This document shows positions 43,555 through 51,256 of a stretch of 52,215 bases of DNA, one piece after another. Position 1 is the stretch's first letter, and every line of letters starts with the position of its first letter. The DNA comes from Deltaproteobacteria bacterium. GTDB lineage: Bacteria > Desulfobacterota > RBG-13-43-22. Both the position numbers and the translations under genes were made by a program. Below the pieces are notes generated by a model that had not been told where the DNA came from, searched no databases, and was given only the letters and a program-made list of their open reading frames with translations. The stretch covers positions 1-52,215 of the forward strand of contig JACRBX010000046.1 in assembly GCA_016219225.1 (NCBI GenBank). The letters are read 5' to 3'.

Positions 43555-43662
43555 TTGTTTATCTGAAATCGGCGTTCTATCGTAATTGTCTTTGCAAATA
43601 ATCACTGAAAACTCTAAAATTTAAATACTTTTTACAGGGACTTGCAGGGATAAAACCAGATA

Positions 43663-46494
43663 ATGGTGACATCTAAGAAGACGGGAAACTATAAGAAATC
43701 GCAGGTCGGCAGGAAAGGCGGAACGGCAGAGAAAGGTCTTACAGAGCCGTATCGCCATCCAACTGCGGAGAGTTTGATGCGGCCTGAAGTGGGGACCCAG
43801 GCTCAGTTCAGGAAAAAGAAGCCGCCTGTCAGCTATCGCTACGATTCTTCTCTTTCGCCGGCCCTCGAGTGGGACGGGCAGAACCCGGCGCGTGAACAGG
43901 GTGAGGTCCTTATCGCCAAGCTCTATGACGTGTCTGCCTCCTTGGCGGAGCTCCAGGCAAAGATAAAAGTCGCGGAATCTGAAAAAGAACGGGCAAAGAT
44001 TCGGGCAGAGATCGACAAAGCGCAGGGCACGGTCGTCTCGATTGCGGATGGGCTCAAGGCCCTTGGCAAGCCGTTTCTGAATTGGGCCGGCAAGGCCGAA
44101 AGGTTGTCTTTCGACGTGCCGACGCTGCCTTTGTTTGTCCATGAGCGGCTTTCGACTAAGGCCATTATTGAAACGCTCGCCAGCCATAAAAAAGACAGGC
44201 AGCTTGACCTGTTCAGCCTCTTCGGCGACCCGCAGCATTCGATTACCGACCAGATCCTGAAGGCCTACGAATATAAGGACAAGTGGGTGAATCGCCTGGT
44301 GCTCGGTGATTCGCTGGTCGTGATGAACTCGCTGGTGCATTACGAAGGACTCGGCGGGCAGGTCCAGATGATTTACATGGACCCACCCTATGGCGTGAAA
44401 TTCGGCTCCAACTTCCAGCCCTTTGTCCGCAAGCGCGATGTGAAGCACAACGAAGACGACGACATGACCCGGGAGCCCGAGATGGTAAAGGCCTATCGCG
44501 ACACCTGGGAGCTCGGCCTTCATTCGTATCTCACTTACATGCGCGACAGGTTACTGATTGCAAGGGAACTCCTTACTCCAAGCGGAAGCATCTTTGTGCA
44601 GATCAGTGATGAGAATTTGCATCATGTAAGGGAAGTGATGGATGAAGTTTTTGGGGCGGAGAATTTTGCTTCATTGATTACATTCCAAAAAACTACAGGA
44701 TCTACAACAAAAACAATTCCTGCTACCTCTGATTATCTGCTCTGGTATGCCAAGGAAATGGATCATGTGAAGTTTCGAAAGCTCTTTGAGCGGCAGAGTC
44801 CGGGGTTATCGGGTGCGCTTGAATATAAACGTTTGGAGTTGGCGGACGGATCGCATGTACCAATAAGCCATTTTAATAATGAAGGTGTATTGTCTTTGCC
44901 TCCGGGAGCTAAGATCTTCGCAACGGACAGCATTGTATCAAAGGGTGGAGACGATCTCGATATAGACCTCGAATGGGAGGGAAAGCGCTTCCGACTGTCA
45001 TGTAAACCTAACCGCCATTGGAAGCCCGGAGTAGAAGGCATTAAAAGACTTTGGGATGTTGGTCGGTTACTTCGTCAGGAAGGTCTGCGCATCTACAAAC
45101 GGTACTTCGAAGACTTCCCTTTCAGAGAGTTAGTTCATGTTTGGGCTGATACAAGAGGTGAGGATGATCCGGATTACGTAGTACAAACACACACTAAAGT
45201 CTTGGAACGTTGTATTAATATGACCACCGACCCCGGCGACCTTGTTCTCGACCCCACCTGCGGCAGTGGAACGACTGCTTATGTTGCCGAGCAGTGGGGC
45301 AGGCGTTGGATCACAATCGATACGAGCCGGGTGCCTCTTGCGCTTGCACGCCAGAGGTTGCTGACAGCTACCTTTCCATATTATGAGCTGAGAGAACCCG
45401 ACCATGGACCGGCTGGCGGCTTTATTTACAAGCGCAAGCAAAACAATAAAGGCGAAGAGGTCGGCGGCATTGTACCCCATGTTACGCTCAAATCCATCGC
45501 AAACAATGAACCCCCCGCAGAAGAAGTGCTGGTGGACAGACCGGAGACCGTAAACAGCATCACCCGCGTTTCCGGTCCTTTCTGCCTTGAAGCGACGATC
45601 CCGACTCCGGTTGACTGGGAAGGTGACGGGGTTGAAGATTGGGGGGCGCCGGAAGCCGGTGAGTACGGGTCATTCATCGACCGGATGCTCGAGGTCCTGC
45701 GGCGGTCTCCGGTGCTTCATTTAGACGGCGGCAAGACCGTTGAGTTCAAAGTTATCCGCAAGCCAGCCAAGACACTGTCCCTTTCGGCAGAAGCGCTTGT
45801 AACTAATGGCAGCGATAAACCCGTGGCCATTCTCTTCGGCCCTGAAAACGGAGCGATCAGCGAAAAGCTTGTATACGAAGCTGCGCGTGAGGCGCATGCC
45901 AAGAATTATTCCCACCTTTTTGTGATCGGCTTTGCCATTCAACCGGGCGCGCGGAATTTTGTCGATAATTGCGAGGCCGCCGTGGGCGTGCCGGCAACAT
46001 ACGTGCAGGCCACACCAGACCTTTTAATGGGCGATCTCCTGAAGAACATGCGCTCAAGTCAGATATTCAGCGTCTGCGGTCTGCCGGAGGTTGTGCTGAG
46101 AAAATTGTCTAAAGGCGCCTCCAAACCTTCTCATACCAAGGGAGAGGGGAATGCTAAGTATCAGGTGGAACTGCTGGGGCTCGATGTCTTCGATCCGGTC
46201 ACGATGATGGTCGATCACCGTAAGGGTAACGATGTCCCTGCCTGGTTCCTCGATACCGATTACAACGGTCTTTGCTTCCATGTCAGCCAGGCATTTTTCC
46301 CCCGCACAAGCGCCTGGGATAATTTGAAACGGGCGCTGAAGTCTACCCATGAAGACAGTGTCTGGGACCATCTTGCCGGAACGATCAGCGCGTCGTTTGA
46401 AGCCGGGGAGCATGGACAGATTGCGGTTAAGGTGATCGACGACCGTGGAAATGAGTTGCTGGTTTTGAAAAACCTCGCGGAGGCAAAGGAATGA
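43663..46494 (+). CDS. Type III-like DNA methyltransferase (Mod), long form
   Basis: 943 residues. It would add a methyl group to adenine in the recognition site and supply target recognition for the restriction complex. Catalytic DPPYG (240-244) comes before the SAM motif VLDPTCGSGTT (about 526-537), the beta-class order used by type III Mod enzymes. A helical N-terminal part (about 60-210) precedes the catalytic domain, the target-recognition region lies between the motifs, and about 340 residues follow the SAM motif. Typical Mod proteins have about 600-700 residues, so this is long. The stop overlaps the next gene by 4 bp. The ribosome-binding site is poor. Confidence 0.9.
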   Translation: MVTSKKTGNYKKSQVGRKGGTAEKGLTEPYRHPTAESLMRPEVGTQAQFRKKKPPVSYRYDSSLSPALEWDGQNPAREQGEVLIAKLYDVSASLAELQAKIKVAESEKERAKIRAEIDKAQGTVVSIADGLKALGKPFLNWAGKAERLSFDVPTLPLFVHERLSTKAIIETLASHKKDRQLDLFSLFGDPQHSITDQILKAYEYKDKWVNRLVLGDSLVVMNSLVHYEGLGGQVQMIYMDPPYGVKFGSNFQPFVRKRDVKHNEDDDMTREPEMVKAYRDTWELGLHSYLTYMRDRLLIARELLTPSGSIFVQISDENLHHVREVMDEVFGAENFASLITFQKTTGSTTKTIPATSDYLLWYAKEMDHVKFRKLFERQSPGLSGALEYKRLELADGSHVPISHFNNEGVLSLPPGAKIFATDSIVSKGGDDLDIDLEWEGKRFRLSCKPNRHWKPGVEGIKRLWDVGRLLRQEGLRIYKRYFEDFPFRELVHVWADTRGEDDPDYVVQTHTKVLERCINMTTDPGDLVLDPTCGSGTTAYVAEQWGRRWITIDTSRVPLALARQRLLTATFPYYELREPDHGPAGGFIYKRKQNNKGEEVGGIVPHVTLKSIANNEPPAEEVLVDRPETVNSITRVSGPFCLEATIPTPVDWEGDGVEDWGAPEAGEYGSFIDRMLEVLRRSPVLHLDGGKTVEFKVIRKPAKTLSLSAEALVTNGSDKPVAILFGPENGAISEKLVYEAAREAHAKNYSHLFVIGFAIQPGARNFVDNCEAAVGVPATYVQATPDLLMGDLLKNMRSSQIFSVCGLPEVVLRKLSKGASKPSHTKGEGNAKYQVELLGLDVFDPVTMMVDHRKGNDVPAWFLDTDYNGLCFHVSQAFFPRTSAWDNLKRALKSTHEDSVWDHLAGTISASFEAGEHGQIAVKVIDDRGNELLVLKNLAEAKE

Positions 46495-48140
46495 TTTCCA
46501 AAGTTGTTATCCGCAGATTCAAGCGTTTCGAAGAAGTTTCTTTCGACATCCCGGGGCATATTGTTCTCGCCGGGCCGAATAATACAGGGAAAACAACGCT
46601 CTTACAGGCTATTGCCTCGTGGTCTTTAGCCCTGGACCGCTGGAAACAACTCAATGACTTTAATCCGCGGCAAGGCTATGTAAAGGCCCCGATTGCACGT
46701 CAGGCCTTTGCATCAGTGCCACTCAGGAGCTTCGACATGCTCTGGAATCGGCGTCAGTACACCGGAAACCTCGAGATTGAAGTTACTTCAACGGACAACA
46801 AGCCCATAACCATGGAGTTTATTTCCGACAGTACGGAACAGATCTATGTGCGGCCGCGCGCAGAGGTTGACCCCTCAGCGCTTAAGAAAAAAACTTTATC
46901 CGCAGTTTACATACCTCCGATGACCGGTTTGGGGACTGAAGAACCCCTTTACCAACCTCCAAAGATTGCTCAGCTTCTTGGCCAGGCTAAACCAGGGGAA
47001 GTAATAAGAAACCTTCTGGTTCAGGCAAAATACTCCGAAACGGCCTGGCAGGCTCTTACAGAATCGATCAAACGTTTATTCGGGTATGAACTTATTCCTC
47101 CCGATGAAACGGGCGCCGACATTCTTGCCCAATATCGCCATGGATCCGGTGAGAAAGAATTGGACATAGCCAGCGCCGGGAGCGGGTTTCAGCAGATATT
47201 GATGCTGCTCACTTTCCTTCATACCCGCCCGGCCTCGATTCTTCTCATTGACGAACCGGATGCCCATCTGCATGTGGTTCTTCAAGATGCCATTTACAGT
47301 GAACTACGATCTGTAGCCATGGACCAGCATTCACAACTCATCATTGCGACGCATTCAGAGGTCATCATCGATTCGGTCGAACCAAGGGAGTTGTTTGCCA
47401 TGTTTGATGGCCCGCGGCCGATAGCGGATAATAAAGAACGCGCCAGCCTGATGCGGTCCCTGTCCATCCTTTCAAACGTCGATATCATCATGGCCCAGGA
47501 CGCACCGGGCATTCTTTATGTGGAAGGCCATACCGATATCGCCATATTGCGTGAATGGGCGCGGATTCTAAACCATAAAGCTTATGACTTGCTGACACGA
47601 ACCCTTTTCTGGAAACCAACCGTTTGGGAGAGCAGACTCGGGGCCGGCGACGTGCAGGCCCGCGAACATTATGACGCCTTACAGCTTGTTAAACCCGGCA
47701 TTCCCGGTTTGATGCTGCTTGACGGCGACTGCCGGGTGGAAGTCACCGCGTCCCAGATTACCGGAATCGGCTTACAGCGCGTCCGCTGGAAAAGATATGA
47801 AATCGAAAGCTATCTGGTTCATCCCGCCGCCTTAAGACGTTTTGTCGAAAACCAGGTTGGGGAAGATGCGGCAGAACCGCATTTGGCCGATCTCGACAAA
47901 TATTTTCAGGCCAATTTTCCGCCACCCTTTATCGAGAATCCATTATCCGACCCGGCATTCCTGATAAGCACCAAAGCCCGTGTTGAATTTATTCCTCCGG
48001 CTTTGGAGGCGGCAGGCCTTTTCAACATTCCCTATACAAAATATAATGAAATTGCAGCGGTTATGCTGCCAGAAGAGATACACCCGGAAATAATAGAAAA
48101 ACTTGACGCCATCTGTAGCGCTTTTAATATACCCCTATGA
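46491..48140 (+). CDS. OLD/PARIS-like AAA ATPase with TOPRIM domain
   Basis: 549 residues. The N-terminal ABC-type ATPase has Walker A AGPNNTGKTTL (27-37), a signature-like DIASAGSGFQQILMLL and Walker B ILLIDEPDAHLH (about 250-261), then IIATHSEVIIDSV with the H-loop. The C-terminal part has a TOPRIM-like pair: LYVEGHTDIAILRE (about 342-355) and LMLLDGDCR (about 407-415). This matches OLD-family nucleases and the AriA/AriB pair of PARIS joined in one chain. It overlaps both neighbours by 4 bp (ATGA), so it is made with the Mod and Res proteins. Its role inside a type III-like locus is unknown; it may sense broken or foreign DNA or act as a back-up effector. Confidence 0.85.
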   Translation: MISKVVIRRFKRFEEVSFDIPGHIVLAGPNNTGKTTLLQAIASWSLALDRWKQLNDFNPRQGYVKAPIARQAFASVPLRSFDMLWNRRQYTGNLEIEVTSTDNKPITMEFISDSTEQIYVRPRAEVDPSALKKKTLSAVYIPPMTGLGTEEPLYQPPKIAQLLGQAKPGEVIRNLLVQAKYSETAWQALTESIKRLFGYELIPPDETGADILAQYRHGSGEKELDIASAGSGFQQILMLLTFLHTRPASILLIDEPDAHLHVVLQDAIYSELRSVAMDQHSQLIIATHSEVIIDSVEPRELFAMFDGPRPIADNKERASLMRSLSILSNVDIIMAQDAPGILYVEGHTDIAILREWARILNHKAYDLLTRTLFWKPTVWESRLGAGDVQAREHYDALQLVKPGIPGLMLLDGDCRVEVTASQITGIGLQRVRWKRYEIESYLVHPAALRRFVENQVGEDAAEPHLADLDKYFQANFPPPFIENPLSDPAFLISTKARVEFIPPALEAAGLFNIPYTKYNEIAAVMLPEEIHPEIIEKLDAICSAFNIPL

Positions 48141-51100
48141 ACCAGTACGAAGTTCCCGAACCGATCCTGAATTCACCTTATCTTGAACCTTCGTCCTACT
48201 GGCGCATTATCGAAGGCGAGCCTCCTGTGCAGATAGAAGGCCGGAGACCGGCCATGTACTATTATCGTCCCCCTTTGAAATCCCTGTCTGAATCTCCTGA
48301 AGGCATCGGCACGGCTATCGAACTGAAGCTTGTTAATCGTGTTCGGGGCCGGATGAAGGAGTGGCTGCCGTTGGCGCTCAAAGGGGATGGCGGAGTGACC
48401 GGGATTAGCTGTGAACTCCTTAATTACTGGCGCCGCGAAGGCCGACAGCAACGGCTTTTCTTTGCCCAGCTTGAGGCCGCCGAGACCATTATTTTTCTGA
48501 AGGAAGCCCGCGCTGATTTTCTGCAGGGCATTTCTGTTCCACCTGACGAGCCGAGCGAGGAGCGAAAAGCCGAAGGGTTCAAGGCATTCGGTCGTTATGC
48601 CTGTAAGATGGCCACGGGGTCCGGCAAGACCACCGTCATGGGCATGATAACCGCCTGGAGCATATTGAACAAGATTAATAGCCGGAATGACAGCCGCTTT
48701 TCTGACGCCGTGCTCGTCGTCTGTCCCAATGTGACGATCCGAAGCAGGCTTCAGGAACTCGATCCTGAACGAGGAGAGGCAAGCATTTATCGCACGCGTG
48801 ATCTTGTGCCGTCTCATCTTATGCCGGATCTTACAAAAGGGAAAATACTCATAACGAACTGGCATGTTTTTGAGCCCCAGGTCATGCAGACAGCGGGGGT
48901 CAGCGCCAAAGTAGCCAAAACCGGCGTGCCGGTAAGCATCACGGAAACGATTATTATCGGCGAAAAGACCACTACCGCCCGTGGGACGCGTTATTTGACA
49001 TTAGAAGATCTGACCAAACAGGTGGATGCCGGGATATTGCATATCCTTTCGGAAGAGCGTGATAAGCAAGGCCATCTCAAAAAAGTAAAGATCGAATCCA
49101 CCAAGTATGTTGAAAGCGATACGGCGCTGTTGAATCGTGTGCTCGGACGTGACATTGGAGGAAAGCGGAATATCCTGGTGCTTAATGATGAGGCCCATCA
49201 CGCTTACCGGATCAGAAGGCCTGAACCCGAAGAAGGAGAAGAAGACCTTTTTGGCGAGGAAGAGGAAATCGAAGAGTTTTTTAAAGAGGCCACTGTCTGG
49301 GTTGAGGGGCTTGATCGTATCAACAAAAACCGTGGCATCAATTTCTGTGTGGACCTCTCCGCAACGCCTTATTTTCTCGGCCGGATGGGACCGGACAGCA
49401 ACCGCATCTTCCCCTGGGTGGTCAGCGAATTCGGGCTGACGGATGCCATAGAATCAGGGCTTACCAAAATTCCCCAGCTTGCCGTGCGTGACACGACCGG
49501 CAAAGAAATACCGGGCTACTTCAATATCTGGCGATGGATTTTGCCACACCTGACAACTTCCGAGCGTGGCGGTAAGAAGGAGGCTCCAAAACCGGAGGCG
49601 ATCCTCAAGTGGGCCCATACCCCGATTGTCATGCTGGCCGGACTCTGGGCTGAACTCTGTCAGGAATGGGAAGGGAACAAGGAAGACCCCCGACCTCCGG
49701 TGTTTATCCTCGTCTGCAAAAATACAAAGATTGCCAAGGTCATTTACGAGTGGCTGGCTGAGAATAATCCTCCTGCCGGAATTCCACCGTCGAAAATCGA
49801 CGGGTTTCGCAATAACGGAAGAATCAGCACGATTCGGGTCGACTCTAAGGTGGTCCATGAGACTGACACGGGCGAGGCCAAGAGTGATGAATCCCGTTGG
49901 ATGCGTTTTACCCTTGATACCGTCGGCAAGCTGGAGTGGCCCCGGGACAGACAAGGTCGGACGCTCTATCCTGAAGGTTTCGAGGAATTAGGAAAGAAGC
50001 TGGACAGGCCGTTATACCCACCCGGCAGAGACATTCGTTGTATCGTCAGTGTCGGTATGCTTACCGAAGGCTGGGATTGCAATACCGTGACGCATATCAT
50101 CGGACTCCGTCCCTTTATGTCTCAACTGCTTTGTGAACAAGTTGTAGGCCGTGGGCTGCGGAGATCAAACTACGAGGTGGGGGAGGACGGAAAACTGACT
50201 GAAGAGGTCGCTAAGGTTTTTGGTGTTCCCTTTGAAATAATTCCCTTTAAGGAAACGAAAGATGGCCCGCGGATACCCCCGGTCAAGCGGCACCATGTCT
50301 ATGCTATCCCGGCCAAGGCCCGCTATGAAATCAAGTTCCCTCGTGTTGAGGGGTATACGCAGGCCATACGCAACAGGATATCGGTGGACTGGAATGGGAT
50401 TCCTGAACTCATTCTGAACCCTCTCCACATTCCTCCTGAGGTGCAGATGAAAGCGGCCCTTCTCAGTAATCAAGGAAGGCCGTCTCTTTTGGGGCCGGGA
50501 AAGCTGGAAAGTGTAGACTTGAGTCCATTCAGAACAGGACGTCGATTTCAGGAATTGGTCTTTGAGCTTGCTCGTGACTTGACTCGGGTGTATGCATCAC
50601 AGCCAGGTTGCGAGGTTCCCGTTCAGGTCCTTTTCCCGCAGCTTGCCGGAATCGTTGATTATTATTTAAGCGAAAAAGTAAAACCAGTCGATCCGGCAAG
50701 TATCCTTGATGTTTTTCTTTCTCCGTATTATGGCTGGGCCATAGAAAGCCTTTTAAGCGGTATAAAACCTGATGTCATGACAGGTGAAACTCCTGAGGTA
50801 GCCGTCTATGAGTCAAGCAGAGGGGCGGGTTCGACCTCGGACGTCGATTTTTGGACAAGTAAAGAAGTGCGTGAAGTTGAGCGGTCCCATCTGAACTATA
50901 TCGTTGCTGATACCCGAATATGGGAGCAGTCAGCCGCATACACCATCGATACCCATCCGGCTACCGGGGCTTTTGTGAAAAACCAGGGCTTGGGATTTGC
51001 AATGCCCTATTTCCACAACGGCCAGAGCCACGATTATATTCCCGATTTTATCATTCGATTAGATACTGGGGGTGGAGTGTCTTATTTGATCCTTGAAACC

Positions 51101-51256
51101 AAAGGCTTTGACGAGCTTGAATCCATCAAGAAGGCTGCGGCAGAGCGCTGGATTAACGCCGTCAACGAAGATGGACAATATGGGTATTGGCAGTACGCTG
51201 TTGCTAAAAAGCCAGAAGAAGTCAGGAAGTGCCTGGATAATGCGAGAAAACGATGA
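48137..51256 (+). CDS. Type III-like restriction subunit (Res), helicase-nuclease
   Basis: 1039 residues. A superfamily-2 helicase with Walker A MATGSGKTTVMG (about 158-169), motif II NDEAHHAYR (about 350-358), motif VI-like CEQVVGRGLRRS (about 665-676), and a C-terminal PD-(D/E)xK nuclease: YIPDFIIRLD (about 966-975) and YLILETKGFDE (about 981-991), with Asp, Glu and Lys of the active site. Such subunits move along DNA and cut between unmethylated sites. Length is near normal for Res (about 970-1000). A long acidic insert follows motif II (EEGEEDLFGEEEEIEEFFKE). It starts inside the previous stop codon. Confidence 0.9.
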   Translation: MNQYEVPEPILNSPYLEPSSYWRIIEGEPPVQIEGRRPAMYYYRPPLKSLSESPEGIGTAIELKLVNRVRGRMKEWLPLALKGDGGVTGISCELLNYWRREGRQQRLFFAQLEAAETIIFLKEARADFLQGISVPPDEPSEERKAEGFKAFGRYACKMATGSGKTTVMGMITAWSILNKINSRNDSRFSDAVLVVCPNVTIRSRLQELDPERGEASIYRTRDLVPSHLMPDLTKGKILITNWHVFEPQVMQTAGVSAKVAKTGVPVSITETIIIGEKTTTARGTRYLTLEDLTKQVDAGILHILSEERDKQGHLKKVKIESTKYVESDTALLNRVLGRDIGGKRNILVLNDEAHHAYRIRRPEPEEGEEDLFGEEEEIEEFFKEATVWVEGLDRINKNRGINFCVDLSATPYFLGRMGPDSNRIFPWVVSEFGLTDAIESGLTKIPQLAVRDTTGKEIPGYFNIWRWILPHLTTSERGGKKEAPKPEAILKWAHTPIVMLAGLWAELCQEWEGNKEDPRPPVFILVCKNTKIAKVIYEWLAENNPPAGIPPSKIDGFRNNGRISTIRVDSKVVHETDTGEAKSDESRWMRFTLDTVGKLEWPRDRQGRTLYPEGFEELGKKLDRPLYPPGRDIRCIVSVGMLTEGWDCNTVTHIIGLRPFMSQLLCEQVVGRGLRRSNYEVGEDGKLTEEVAKVFGVPFEIIPFKETKDGPRIPPVKRHHVYAIPAKARYEIKFPRVEGYTQAIRNRISVDWNGIPELILNPLHIPPEVQMKAALLSNQGRPSLLGPGKLESVDLSPFRTGRRFQELVFELARDLTRVYASQPGCEVPVQVLFPQLAGIVDYYLSEKVKPVDPASILDVFLSPYYGWAIESLLSGIKPDVMTGETPEVAVYESSRGAGSTSDVDFWTSKEVREVERSHLNYIVADTRIWEQSAAYTIDTHPATGAFVKNQGLGFAMPYFHNGQSHDYIPDFIIRLDTGGGVSYLILETKGFDELESIKKAAAERWINAVNEDGQYGYWQYAVAKKPEEVRKCLDNARKR

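What the first reader, a model, noticed from the sequence alone, without database searches (positions are those of the whole stretch)
43663..51256. Three-gene type III-like restriction operon with an embedded OLD/TOPRIM ATPase
mod, an ABC-ATPase/TOPRIM protein and res are fused into one operon by two ATGA overlaps (46491-46494 and 48137-48140), which implies one functional unit. The ATPase has GPNNTGKTT and IDEPDAHLH and the TOPRIM-like EGHTD and LLDGD. Ordinary type III systems have only mod and res. OLD and PARIS proteins are anti-phage effectors on their own. Such a merger could couple target recognition with a second effector, or the ATPase could detect phage-coded inhibitors of restriction. 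I do not recall this exact arrangement as a described system, but cannot search.
Basis: partly seen in the sequence, partly recalled or inferred. Interest (0 to 1): 0.78.

Follow-up and report, generated by a model that had tools for sequence, protein, structure and literature searches.

The report
OLD nuclease inside type III-like restriction operon
A bacterial DNA-cutting defence operon carries, between its DNA-marking gene and its DNA-cutting gene, a third gene for an OLD-family ATPase-nuclease; the same trio recurs in at least six bacterial phyla, and in one case the middle gene was swapped while its neighbours stayed put, which suggests a fast-evolving back-up weapon against viruses that disarm restriction.

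Summary
Res belongs to NCBIfam's BPTD_3080 family. The trio is not unique: I found it in 21 distinct genomes of at least six phyla, plus one divergent case; twelve of the 21 keep both overlaps. In Res-based searches 10 of 13 members of this Res clade carry the ATPase. The trio ATPases form a clade found only in this slot, with all ATPase and TOPRIM catalytic residues conserved. Two related Burkholderiales genomes have Mod and Res 96% identical at the same locus but ATPases only about 50% identical, with sharp breakpoints: the ATPase allele was exchanged. ATPase allele and Mod target-recognition domain vary independently, which argues against the ATPase reading the Mod target. The mod-res gap is a slot that elsewhere is empty or holds toxin or defence genes. 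Cousins of the ATPase sit between hsdS and hsdR of type I systems, as embedded effectors of the PrrC kind do. Most likely it is a back-up effector guarding the restriction system (inferred, untested). I found no published description of this arrangement. New variant of a known kind.

The parts
43663..46494 (+). mod: type III-like beta-class amino-methyltransferase, 943 aa
   Evidence: PADLOC MTase_III 518 bits, Pfam N6_N4_Mtase; sequence match to EcoP15I Mod 4zcf, E 4e-13; DPPY invariant in 14 orthologues
44380..44391 (+). Mod motif IV DPPY (residues 240-243)
   Evidence: sequence; invariant in alignment A4
44650..45174 (+). Mod target-recognition domain (residues about 330-504)
   Evidence: 20-45% identity to relatives whose flanking Mod core is about 90% or more identical
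45250..45276 (+). Mod motif I DPTCGSGTT (residues 530-538)
   Evidence: sequence; invariant in A4
46491..46494 (+). ATGA overlap of mod stop and ATPase start
   Evidence: the same 4-base overlap in 16 of 21 trio loci
46491..48140 (+). OLD-family ABC-ATPase/TOPRIM protein, 549 aa
   Evidence: AlphaFold pLDDT 91.2, pTM 0.84; Foldseek best hit OLD 6P74 E 1.3e-11; AAA_21/AAA_15
46572..46598 (+). Walker A GPNNTGKTT
   Evidence: K34 in 46 of 46 relatives
47241..47273 (+). Walker B region LLIDEPDAHLH
   Evidence: D254 and E255 in 46 of 46
47523..47537 (+). TOPRIM motif EGHTD (E345)
   Evidence: E or D in 46 of 46
47715..47729 (+). TOPRIM motif LLDGD (D411, D413)
   Evidence: D411 in 46 of 46; D413 in 21 of 21 of the near set
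47793..47810 (+). TOPRIM-associated motif RYEIES (E437, E439)
   Evidence: both E in 46 of 46
48137..48140 (+). ATGA overlap of ATPase stop and res start
   Evidence: conserved together with the first overlap in 12 of 21 trio loci
48137..51256 (+). res: BPTD_3080-family SF2 helicase/translocase with C-terminal PD-(D/E)XK nuclease, 1039 aa
   Evidence: NF046055 1013 bits; helicase motifs ATGSGKTT, NDEAHH, SATP, QVVGRGLRR and P969-D970, E987, K989 conserved
51041..51103 (+). predicted PD-(D/E)XK active site of Res (PDFIIRL...ILETKG)
   Evidence: conserved in A3; this end modelled at pLDDT 82-87 in an otherwise poor model; TnsA-like Pfam hint below cut-off
43592..51254 (+). transferable unit: DNA similarity to the sister genome begins 71 bases before mod and ends at res; flanks unrelated
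   Evidence: blastn of window against L020, L046, L047, L225

Best explanation
This is a type III-like restriction-modification operon (BPTD_3080 family) with an OLD-family ATPase-TOPRIM nuclease as an embedded accessory effector. Mod methylates a short site; Mod with Res cuts unmethylated DNA (inferred from family). The ATPase-TOPRIM protein, made from the same message by overlapping stop and start codons, is thought to stay silent while Mod-Res is intact, and to be switched on when a phage factor inhibits or alters the restriction complex, or when its own phage trigger binds. The TOPRIM centre would then cut nucleic acid (DNA as in OLD/GajA, or tRNA as in PARIS AriB) and stop phage growth, probably at the cost of the cell. 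Shown here: gene content, overlaps, conservation of both catalytic centres, recurrence, restriction of this ATPase clade to the slot, absence of the ATPase from some close mod-res pairs, and allele exchange independent of the target-recognition domain. Inferred: silence by default, trigger, substrate and cell-level outcome.
For: Trio in 21 genomes of at least six phyla, most with ATGA coupling. The trio ATPases form one supported clade (96/97) in which no stand-alone member was found; relatives below about 37% identity are mostly stand-alone. Res clade of 22 rows: 19 with the ATPase, fewest-change reading one gain and two losses. K34, D254, E255, H288, D411, E437 and E439 invariant in 46 of 46. 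L181/L182: Mod 96%, Res 96%, ATPase about 50%; four-fold sites 0.76, 0.56 and 0.25; blastn similarity breaks inside the ATPase on both sides while the locus flanks stay about 87-88% identical. Further conflicts of ATPase and Res trees: L056/L063/L064 and window/L046/L047. The same gap elsewhere holds toxin or defence genes: MNT-HEPN-like, PIN-like with PDC-M32A, HicB, DUF3800, PD-T4-4 A/B. Cousins of this ATPase lie between HsdS and HsdR of type I systems. Precedents: PrrC, linked to a type I system, is activated by the anti-restriction peptide Stp, and PARIS by Ocr (PMC3506569, PMC12409349).
Against: No experiment; default silence and trigger are not shown. The slot also accepts PD-T4-4, a defence system named in PADLOC, so the gap may simply be a good landing place. 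Stand-alone relatives suggest that the protein family does not need Mod-Res. The ATPase has no PrrC-type nuclease, so PrrC is an analogy of position and logic only. Most loci come from metagenome bins.
Confidence: 0.5

Rival explanations
1. Independent hitch-hiker: the OLD protein is a self-contained defence gene that uses the mod-res gap as a landing slot and the operon's promoter and translation, with no physical or regulatory link to Mod-Res.
For: The slot takes unrelated modules, including PD-T4-4 A/B next to the ATPase in L057 and L058; stand-alone cousins are common; alleles are swapped without change of Mod or Res.
Against: The ATPase clade of the trio was found only in this slot, both ATGA joints are conserved over large divergence, and gene distances correlate (Mantel r 0.77-0.83 for ATPase against Mod and Res; this also follows from plain linkage).
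Confidence: 0.3
2. Third working subunit of the restriction enzyme: the ATPase-TOPRIM protein takes part in translocation or cleavage of unmethylated DNA together with Mod and Res.
For: One transcript with overlapping genes and conserved order; helicase-like third genes are known 5' of mod in some type III systems (PMC8259958).
Against: Res has its own helicase and nuclease motifs; close relatives G010, G822, G376 and M. avium pS2b lack the ATPase; ATPases differing by half sit beside 96% identical Mod and Res; the ATPase allele does not follow the target-recognition domain.
Confidence: 0.12
3. Addiction or anti-loss gene: the ATPase-TOPRIM protein is a toxin held back by Mod-Res whose main effect is to keep the operon in the genome.
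For: Toxin-antitoxin genes occur in the same slot; the operon moves as a unit between genomes.
Against: The ATPase was lost in some close relatives that keep mod and res, and allele exchange is more typical of an arms race than of addiction.
Confidence: 0.08

Closest known systems
EcoprrI with PrrC (type Ic restriction system with linked anticodon nuclease)
   Same: ABC-type NTPase fused to a nuclease, encoded with the restriction genes; type I cousins of the present ATPase lie between hsdS and hsdR.
   Different: PrrC carries an anticodon-nuclease domain and belongs to a type I system; here a TOPRIM domain in a type III-like system (PMC3506569, PMC12409349).
PARIS (AriA/AriB)
   Same: OLD-type ATPase with TOPRIM nuclease; senses an anti-restriction protein (PMC12409349).
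   Different: Not described between mod and res; two proteins as described; the window ATPase scores only 81 bits against AriA, confined to ATPase segments.
OLD nucleases class 1 (P2 Old, TsOLD), class 2 (GajA of Gabija), class 3 (retron)
   Same: Fold family and catalytic motifs; best structural match 6P74.
   Different: Classes are set by neighbours: none, GajB or a reverse transcriptase (PMC10568477); a mod-res context is not among them.
BPTD_3080 family and other type III systems
   Same: Res is a member by curated cut-off; Mod resembles EcoP15I Mod.
   Different: Most BPTD_3080 loci examined have no ATPase between mod and res.
Type III systems with a third ATPase gene (Eco86II, BspHIV)
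   Same: Three-gene type III systems with an extra ATPase (PMC8259958).
   Different: There the extra gene is an SF2 helicase-like ATPase 5' of mod, not an OLD/TOPRIM protein between mod and res.
BREX and BREX-related systems with TOPRIM/OLD back-up effectors
   Same: OLD/TOPRIM proteins recruited as back-up effectors into methylation-based defence operons (PMC12839542).
   Different: Those have PglZ, BrxC or DUF499 cores; here mod and res only.
Hma (helicase, methylase, ATPase)
   Same: Three-gene set of helicase, methylase and ATPase (PMC8565338).
   Different: Hma has an m5C methylase; Mod here is an amino-methyltransferase, and no Hma model appears among the PADLOC hits listed.

Membership tests
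Type III restriction-modification (BPTD_3080 branch) | Mod: beta-class amino-methyltransferase, motif IV before the target-recognition domain before motif I | tested here: met
   DPPY at 240, variable domain 330-504, DPTCGSG at 530
Type III restriction-modification (BPTD_3080 branch) | Res: SF2 helicase motor plus PD-(D/E)XK nuclease | tested here: met
   by sequence motifs and NF046055 above cut-off; whole-protein fold not confirmed, model poor and no significant PDB match
Type III restriction-modification (BPTD_3080 branch) | cuts unmethylated DNA away from an asymmetric site as a Mod2-Res complex | not testable with these tools
   needs biochemistry and methylome data
OLD family nucleases | N-terminal ABC ATPase and C-terminal TOPRIM with conserved catalytic residues | tested here: met
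OLD family nucleases | metal-dependent nuclease activity | not testable with these tools
   residues conserved; no assay
OLD class 1 / 2 / 3 | gene alone / beside gajB helicase / beside retron reverse transcriptase | tested here: not met
   neighbours are mod and res in 21 loci
PARIS | AriA plus AriB, or an AriAB fusion | tested here: not met
   AriA models match only ATPase segments (81 bits); AriAB model 54 bits, partial
EcoprrI/PrrC | type I hsd genes with PrrC-type anticodon nuclease domain | tested here: not met
   mod-res type, TOPRIM instead
Hma | helicase, m5C methylase, ATPase | tested here: not met
   Mod is N6_N4_Mtase; Hma definition from PMC8565338
BREX / BREX-related | PglZ, BrxC or DUF499 ATPase in the locus | tested here: not met
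   operon consists of mod, ATPase and res only; flanks are nadC and a DNA-alkylation repair gene
Guarded back-up effector (works like) | silent until the partner immune system is inhibited | not tested
   needs phage and anti-restriction assays

The most novel reading that the evidence does not exclude
A dedicated class of OLD nucleases serves as exchangeable guard of type III-like restriction systems: it senses phage inhibition of Mod-Res (the type III counterpart of Stp-EcoprrI-PrrC), and its alleles are swapped in place because phage triggers or inhibitors change quickly.
Probability: 0.4. Interest if true: 0.78.

Novelty: new variant of a known kind. Interest (0 to 1): 0.62.

Why it matters
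It adds a mod-res context to the known contexts of OLD nucleases and suggests that the restriction-guarding logic of PrrC and PARIS also exists in type III-like systems. The pair of related genomes with near-identical Mod and Res but swapped ATPases is a natural experiment: it separates what the ATPase senses from what Mod recognises and can be tested directly with phages. The mod-res gap as an accessory-gene slot is also a place to look for unknown defence genes.

Tried and rejected
Uniqueness or a recent one-off insertion in this genome: rejected by 21 genomes and an old clade. The ATPase as partner of the Mod target-recognition domain: rejected, no correlation (r 0.007) and opposite natural swaps. 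Membership in Hma, PARIS, Gabija, retron or BREX classes: see membership test. Viral origin: the scan of viral contigs gave only four distant matches. Plasmids: only weak ATPase matches (about 22-31% identity), while the Res family is common there without this ATPase. Empty-site test: the sister genome has the nad genes without the operon beside nadC, but the far flanking gene was not found in four related genomes, so exact insertion ends rest on similarity breaks only. Structure of Res: model too poor (pTM 0.45) and no significant PDB match. L065 shows an internally rearranged copy, possibly mis-assembly, and was left out of the counts. Literature searches for OLD or TOPRIM with type III or mod/res found no description of this arrangement; a paper I looked up from memory as the ABC-ATPase survey cited in PMC12839542 is not held, so a prior mention cannot be excluded.
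Full report
1. What is in the window. mod (43663-46494, 943 aa), an ATPase/TOPRIM gene (46491-48140, 549 aa) and res (48137-51256, 1039 aa) lie on the + strand with ATGA overlaps at both joints. Mod is an amino-methyltransferase of the type III kind (PADLOC MTase_III 518 bits; N6_N4_Mtase; EcoP15I Mod by sequence). Res is a BPTD_3080-family restriction endonuclease, 1013 bits against a curated cut-off of 800, with helicase motifs and a C-terminal PD...ETK signature conserved in relatives. The middle protein has AAA_21/AAA_15 segments. Its AlphaFold model is confident (pLDDT 91.2, pTM 0.84), and its best solved match is the OLD nuclease 6P74, E 1.3e-11, with PtuA and GajA structures next. Whole-chain TM-scores are low (about 0.3-0.4), so the fold family rather than the exact architecture is supported.

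2. Recurrence. A scan of 84,980 species genomes with the ATPase gave 80 loci. In these, ATPases of 42% identity or more to the window's are next to mod and res, with two provisos: some contigs end early, and L065 is internally rearranged. Those of 36% or less are mostly not next to them. With loci from whole-genome searches there are 21 distinct trio genomes: Deltaproteobacteria-type, Nitrospirota, Acidobacteriota, Planctomycetota, Verrucomicrobiota and Pseudomonadota. L061 is a divergent 22nd case with other genes between. L069 shows an ATPase of another clade directly before a 63% identical res. One member (L181) lies in a 3.39 Mb contig, so the trio is not only a binning artefact. Twelve of 21 keep both 4-base overlaps and 16 keep the mod/ATPase one.

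3. Phylogeny. In a tree of 39 Res proteins, 22 form a group in which 19 have the ATPase and three (G010, G822, G376) do not; the fewest-change reading is one gain and two losses, with L061 separate. Because many loci were found through the ATPase, I counted the Res-based searches alone: 3 of 4 in the window's phylum sample, 4 of 5 in the Burkholderiales-type order sample, 3 of 4 in the Planctomycetota-type phylum sample, that is 10 of 13 within this Res clade. In a tree of 35 ATPases, 21 trio ATPases form a clade (96/97) with no non-trio member. The same genome has a second BPTD_3080 mod-res pair (G000:C208) without an ATPase.

4. Catalytic residues. K34, D254, E255 and H288 of the ATPase and D411, E437 and E439 of the TOPRIM part are identical in 46 of 46 relatives; E345 is E or D in all; D413 is D in all 21 of the near set. 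Both centres are under selection.

5. Allele exchange. L181 and L182 come from two related genomes with the operon at the same locus: flanks and mod/res align at 87-91% DNA identity, but similarity stops inside the ATPase on both sides. Protein identities are Mod 96%, Res 96%, ATPase 50%; identity at four-fold degenerate sites is 0.76, 0.56 and 0.25, so the ATPase alleles are anciently diverged rather than merely fast. The target-recognition domain is 100% identical in this pair. Conversely L046 and L047 share the ATPase (91%) but not the target-recognition domain (37%). Over all pairs the correlation of TRD and ATPase identity is 0.007; the pairs are not independent, so this is descriptive. 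Res and ATPase trees also conflict for L056/L063/L064 and for window/L046/L047. In 11 of 12 pairs with Res above 80% identical the ATPase is less conserved than Res.

6. The slot. Across BPTD_3080 systems the mod-res gap is empty (for example G010, M. avium pS2b, L185, L186, L194, L199) or holds a MNT-HEPN-like pair (L017, L211), a PDC-M32A-like gene with a PIN-like gene (L037), a HicB antitoxin (L180), ORF6N (L189), DUF3800 (L164; a similar-looking gene in L204), IS200-like genes (L187, L190) or PD-T4-4 A/B before the ATPase (L057, L058). The labels MNT-HEPN, PIN and IS200 are from my reading of the sequence, not from a profile search. Makarova and colleagues noted toxin-like domains in type I and III systems in general (PMC3506569).

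7. Cousins. The same ATPase lineage lies between HsdS and HsdR in L072, L095, L097 and L122 (in L095 and L102 with a 4-base overlap to hsdR), next to a HEPN-DUF499 gene in L116 (and a homologue in L094), and in a multiubiquitin/E2/E1-JAB operon in L062. From my own knowledge, the hsdS-hsdR position is that of prrC in EcoprrI.

8. Mechanism. Absence from some close mod-res pairs, intact nuclease and ATPase centres, conserved translational coupling, a clade restricted to the slot, replacement of the slot content by toxin-like genes, and allele exchange independent of target recognition are best explained by an accessory effector with its own trigger, most likely guarding the restriction system as PrrC (triggered by Stp) and PARIS (triggered by Ocr) do (PMC12409349). 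Silence by default, trigger and substrate are inferred. The plain hitch-hiker model is the main rival and cannot be excluded from sequence.

9. Mobility. Similarity to the sister genome covers only 43592-51254; in that genome nadA-nadB-nadC lie on another contig, without the operon beside nadC, and the trio is elsewhere. The three-gene block itself is what moves.

10. Novelty. Third ATPase genes in type III systems (helicase-like, 5' of mod; PMC8259958) and OLD/TOPRIM back-up effectors in BREX (PMC12839542) are published; an OLD/TOPRIM gene between mod and res was not found in the literature searched. New variant of a known kind.

Noticed in passing
L181 7554-9218 and L182 5077-6723 (oriented so that res is on +): ATPase genes only about 50% identical between 96% identical Mod and Res at the same chromosomal locus of two related genomes (order of Burkholderiales type).
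   Followed up: yes
L057 585-16241: The mod-PD-T4-4-ATPase-res operon sits between JetB and JetC of a Wadjet system; in L066 Wadjet-like genes follow res.
   Followed up: partly
L057 6043-8004, L058 6038-8004: PD-T4-4 A/B (a defence system named in PADLOC) lies between mod and the OLD ATPase.
   Followed up: partly
L062 4881-9330: A relative of the ATPase is overlapped by a DUF6527 gene in an operon with multiubiquitin-E2 and ThiF-JAB proteins.
   Followed up: partly
L072, L095, L097, L122: Cousin ATPases lie between HsdS and HsdR of type I restriction systems; in L095 the ATPase and hsdR overlap by 4 bases.
   Followed up: partly
L116 9825-13226, L094 2970-6299: Cousin ATPase next to a HEPN-DUF499 gene (core of BREX-related type 1 systems).
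   Followed up: no
L020 2144-5263 (G002): In the sister genome res has an in-frame TAA that splits off the nuclease end while mod and ATPase are intact; could be a sequencing error in a metagenome bin.
   Followed up: no
G000:C208:14283-17249: Second BPTD_3080 mod-res pair in the same genome, without ATPase.
   Followed up: partly
L065 6999-10154: Mod and ATPase appear fused with internal deletions and res is also deleted inside; decay or mis-assembly.
   Followed up: no
L163 and L165 (Shinella and Agrobacterium plasmids): BPTD_3080 mod-res preceded by helicase genes; a phospholipase D family gene is also annotated upstream in L163.
   Followed up: no
L160 5934-6998 (Planktothrix plasmid): A 354-aa protein without any Pfam or PADLOC match fills the mod-res gap, overlapping res by 4 bases.
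   Followed up: no
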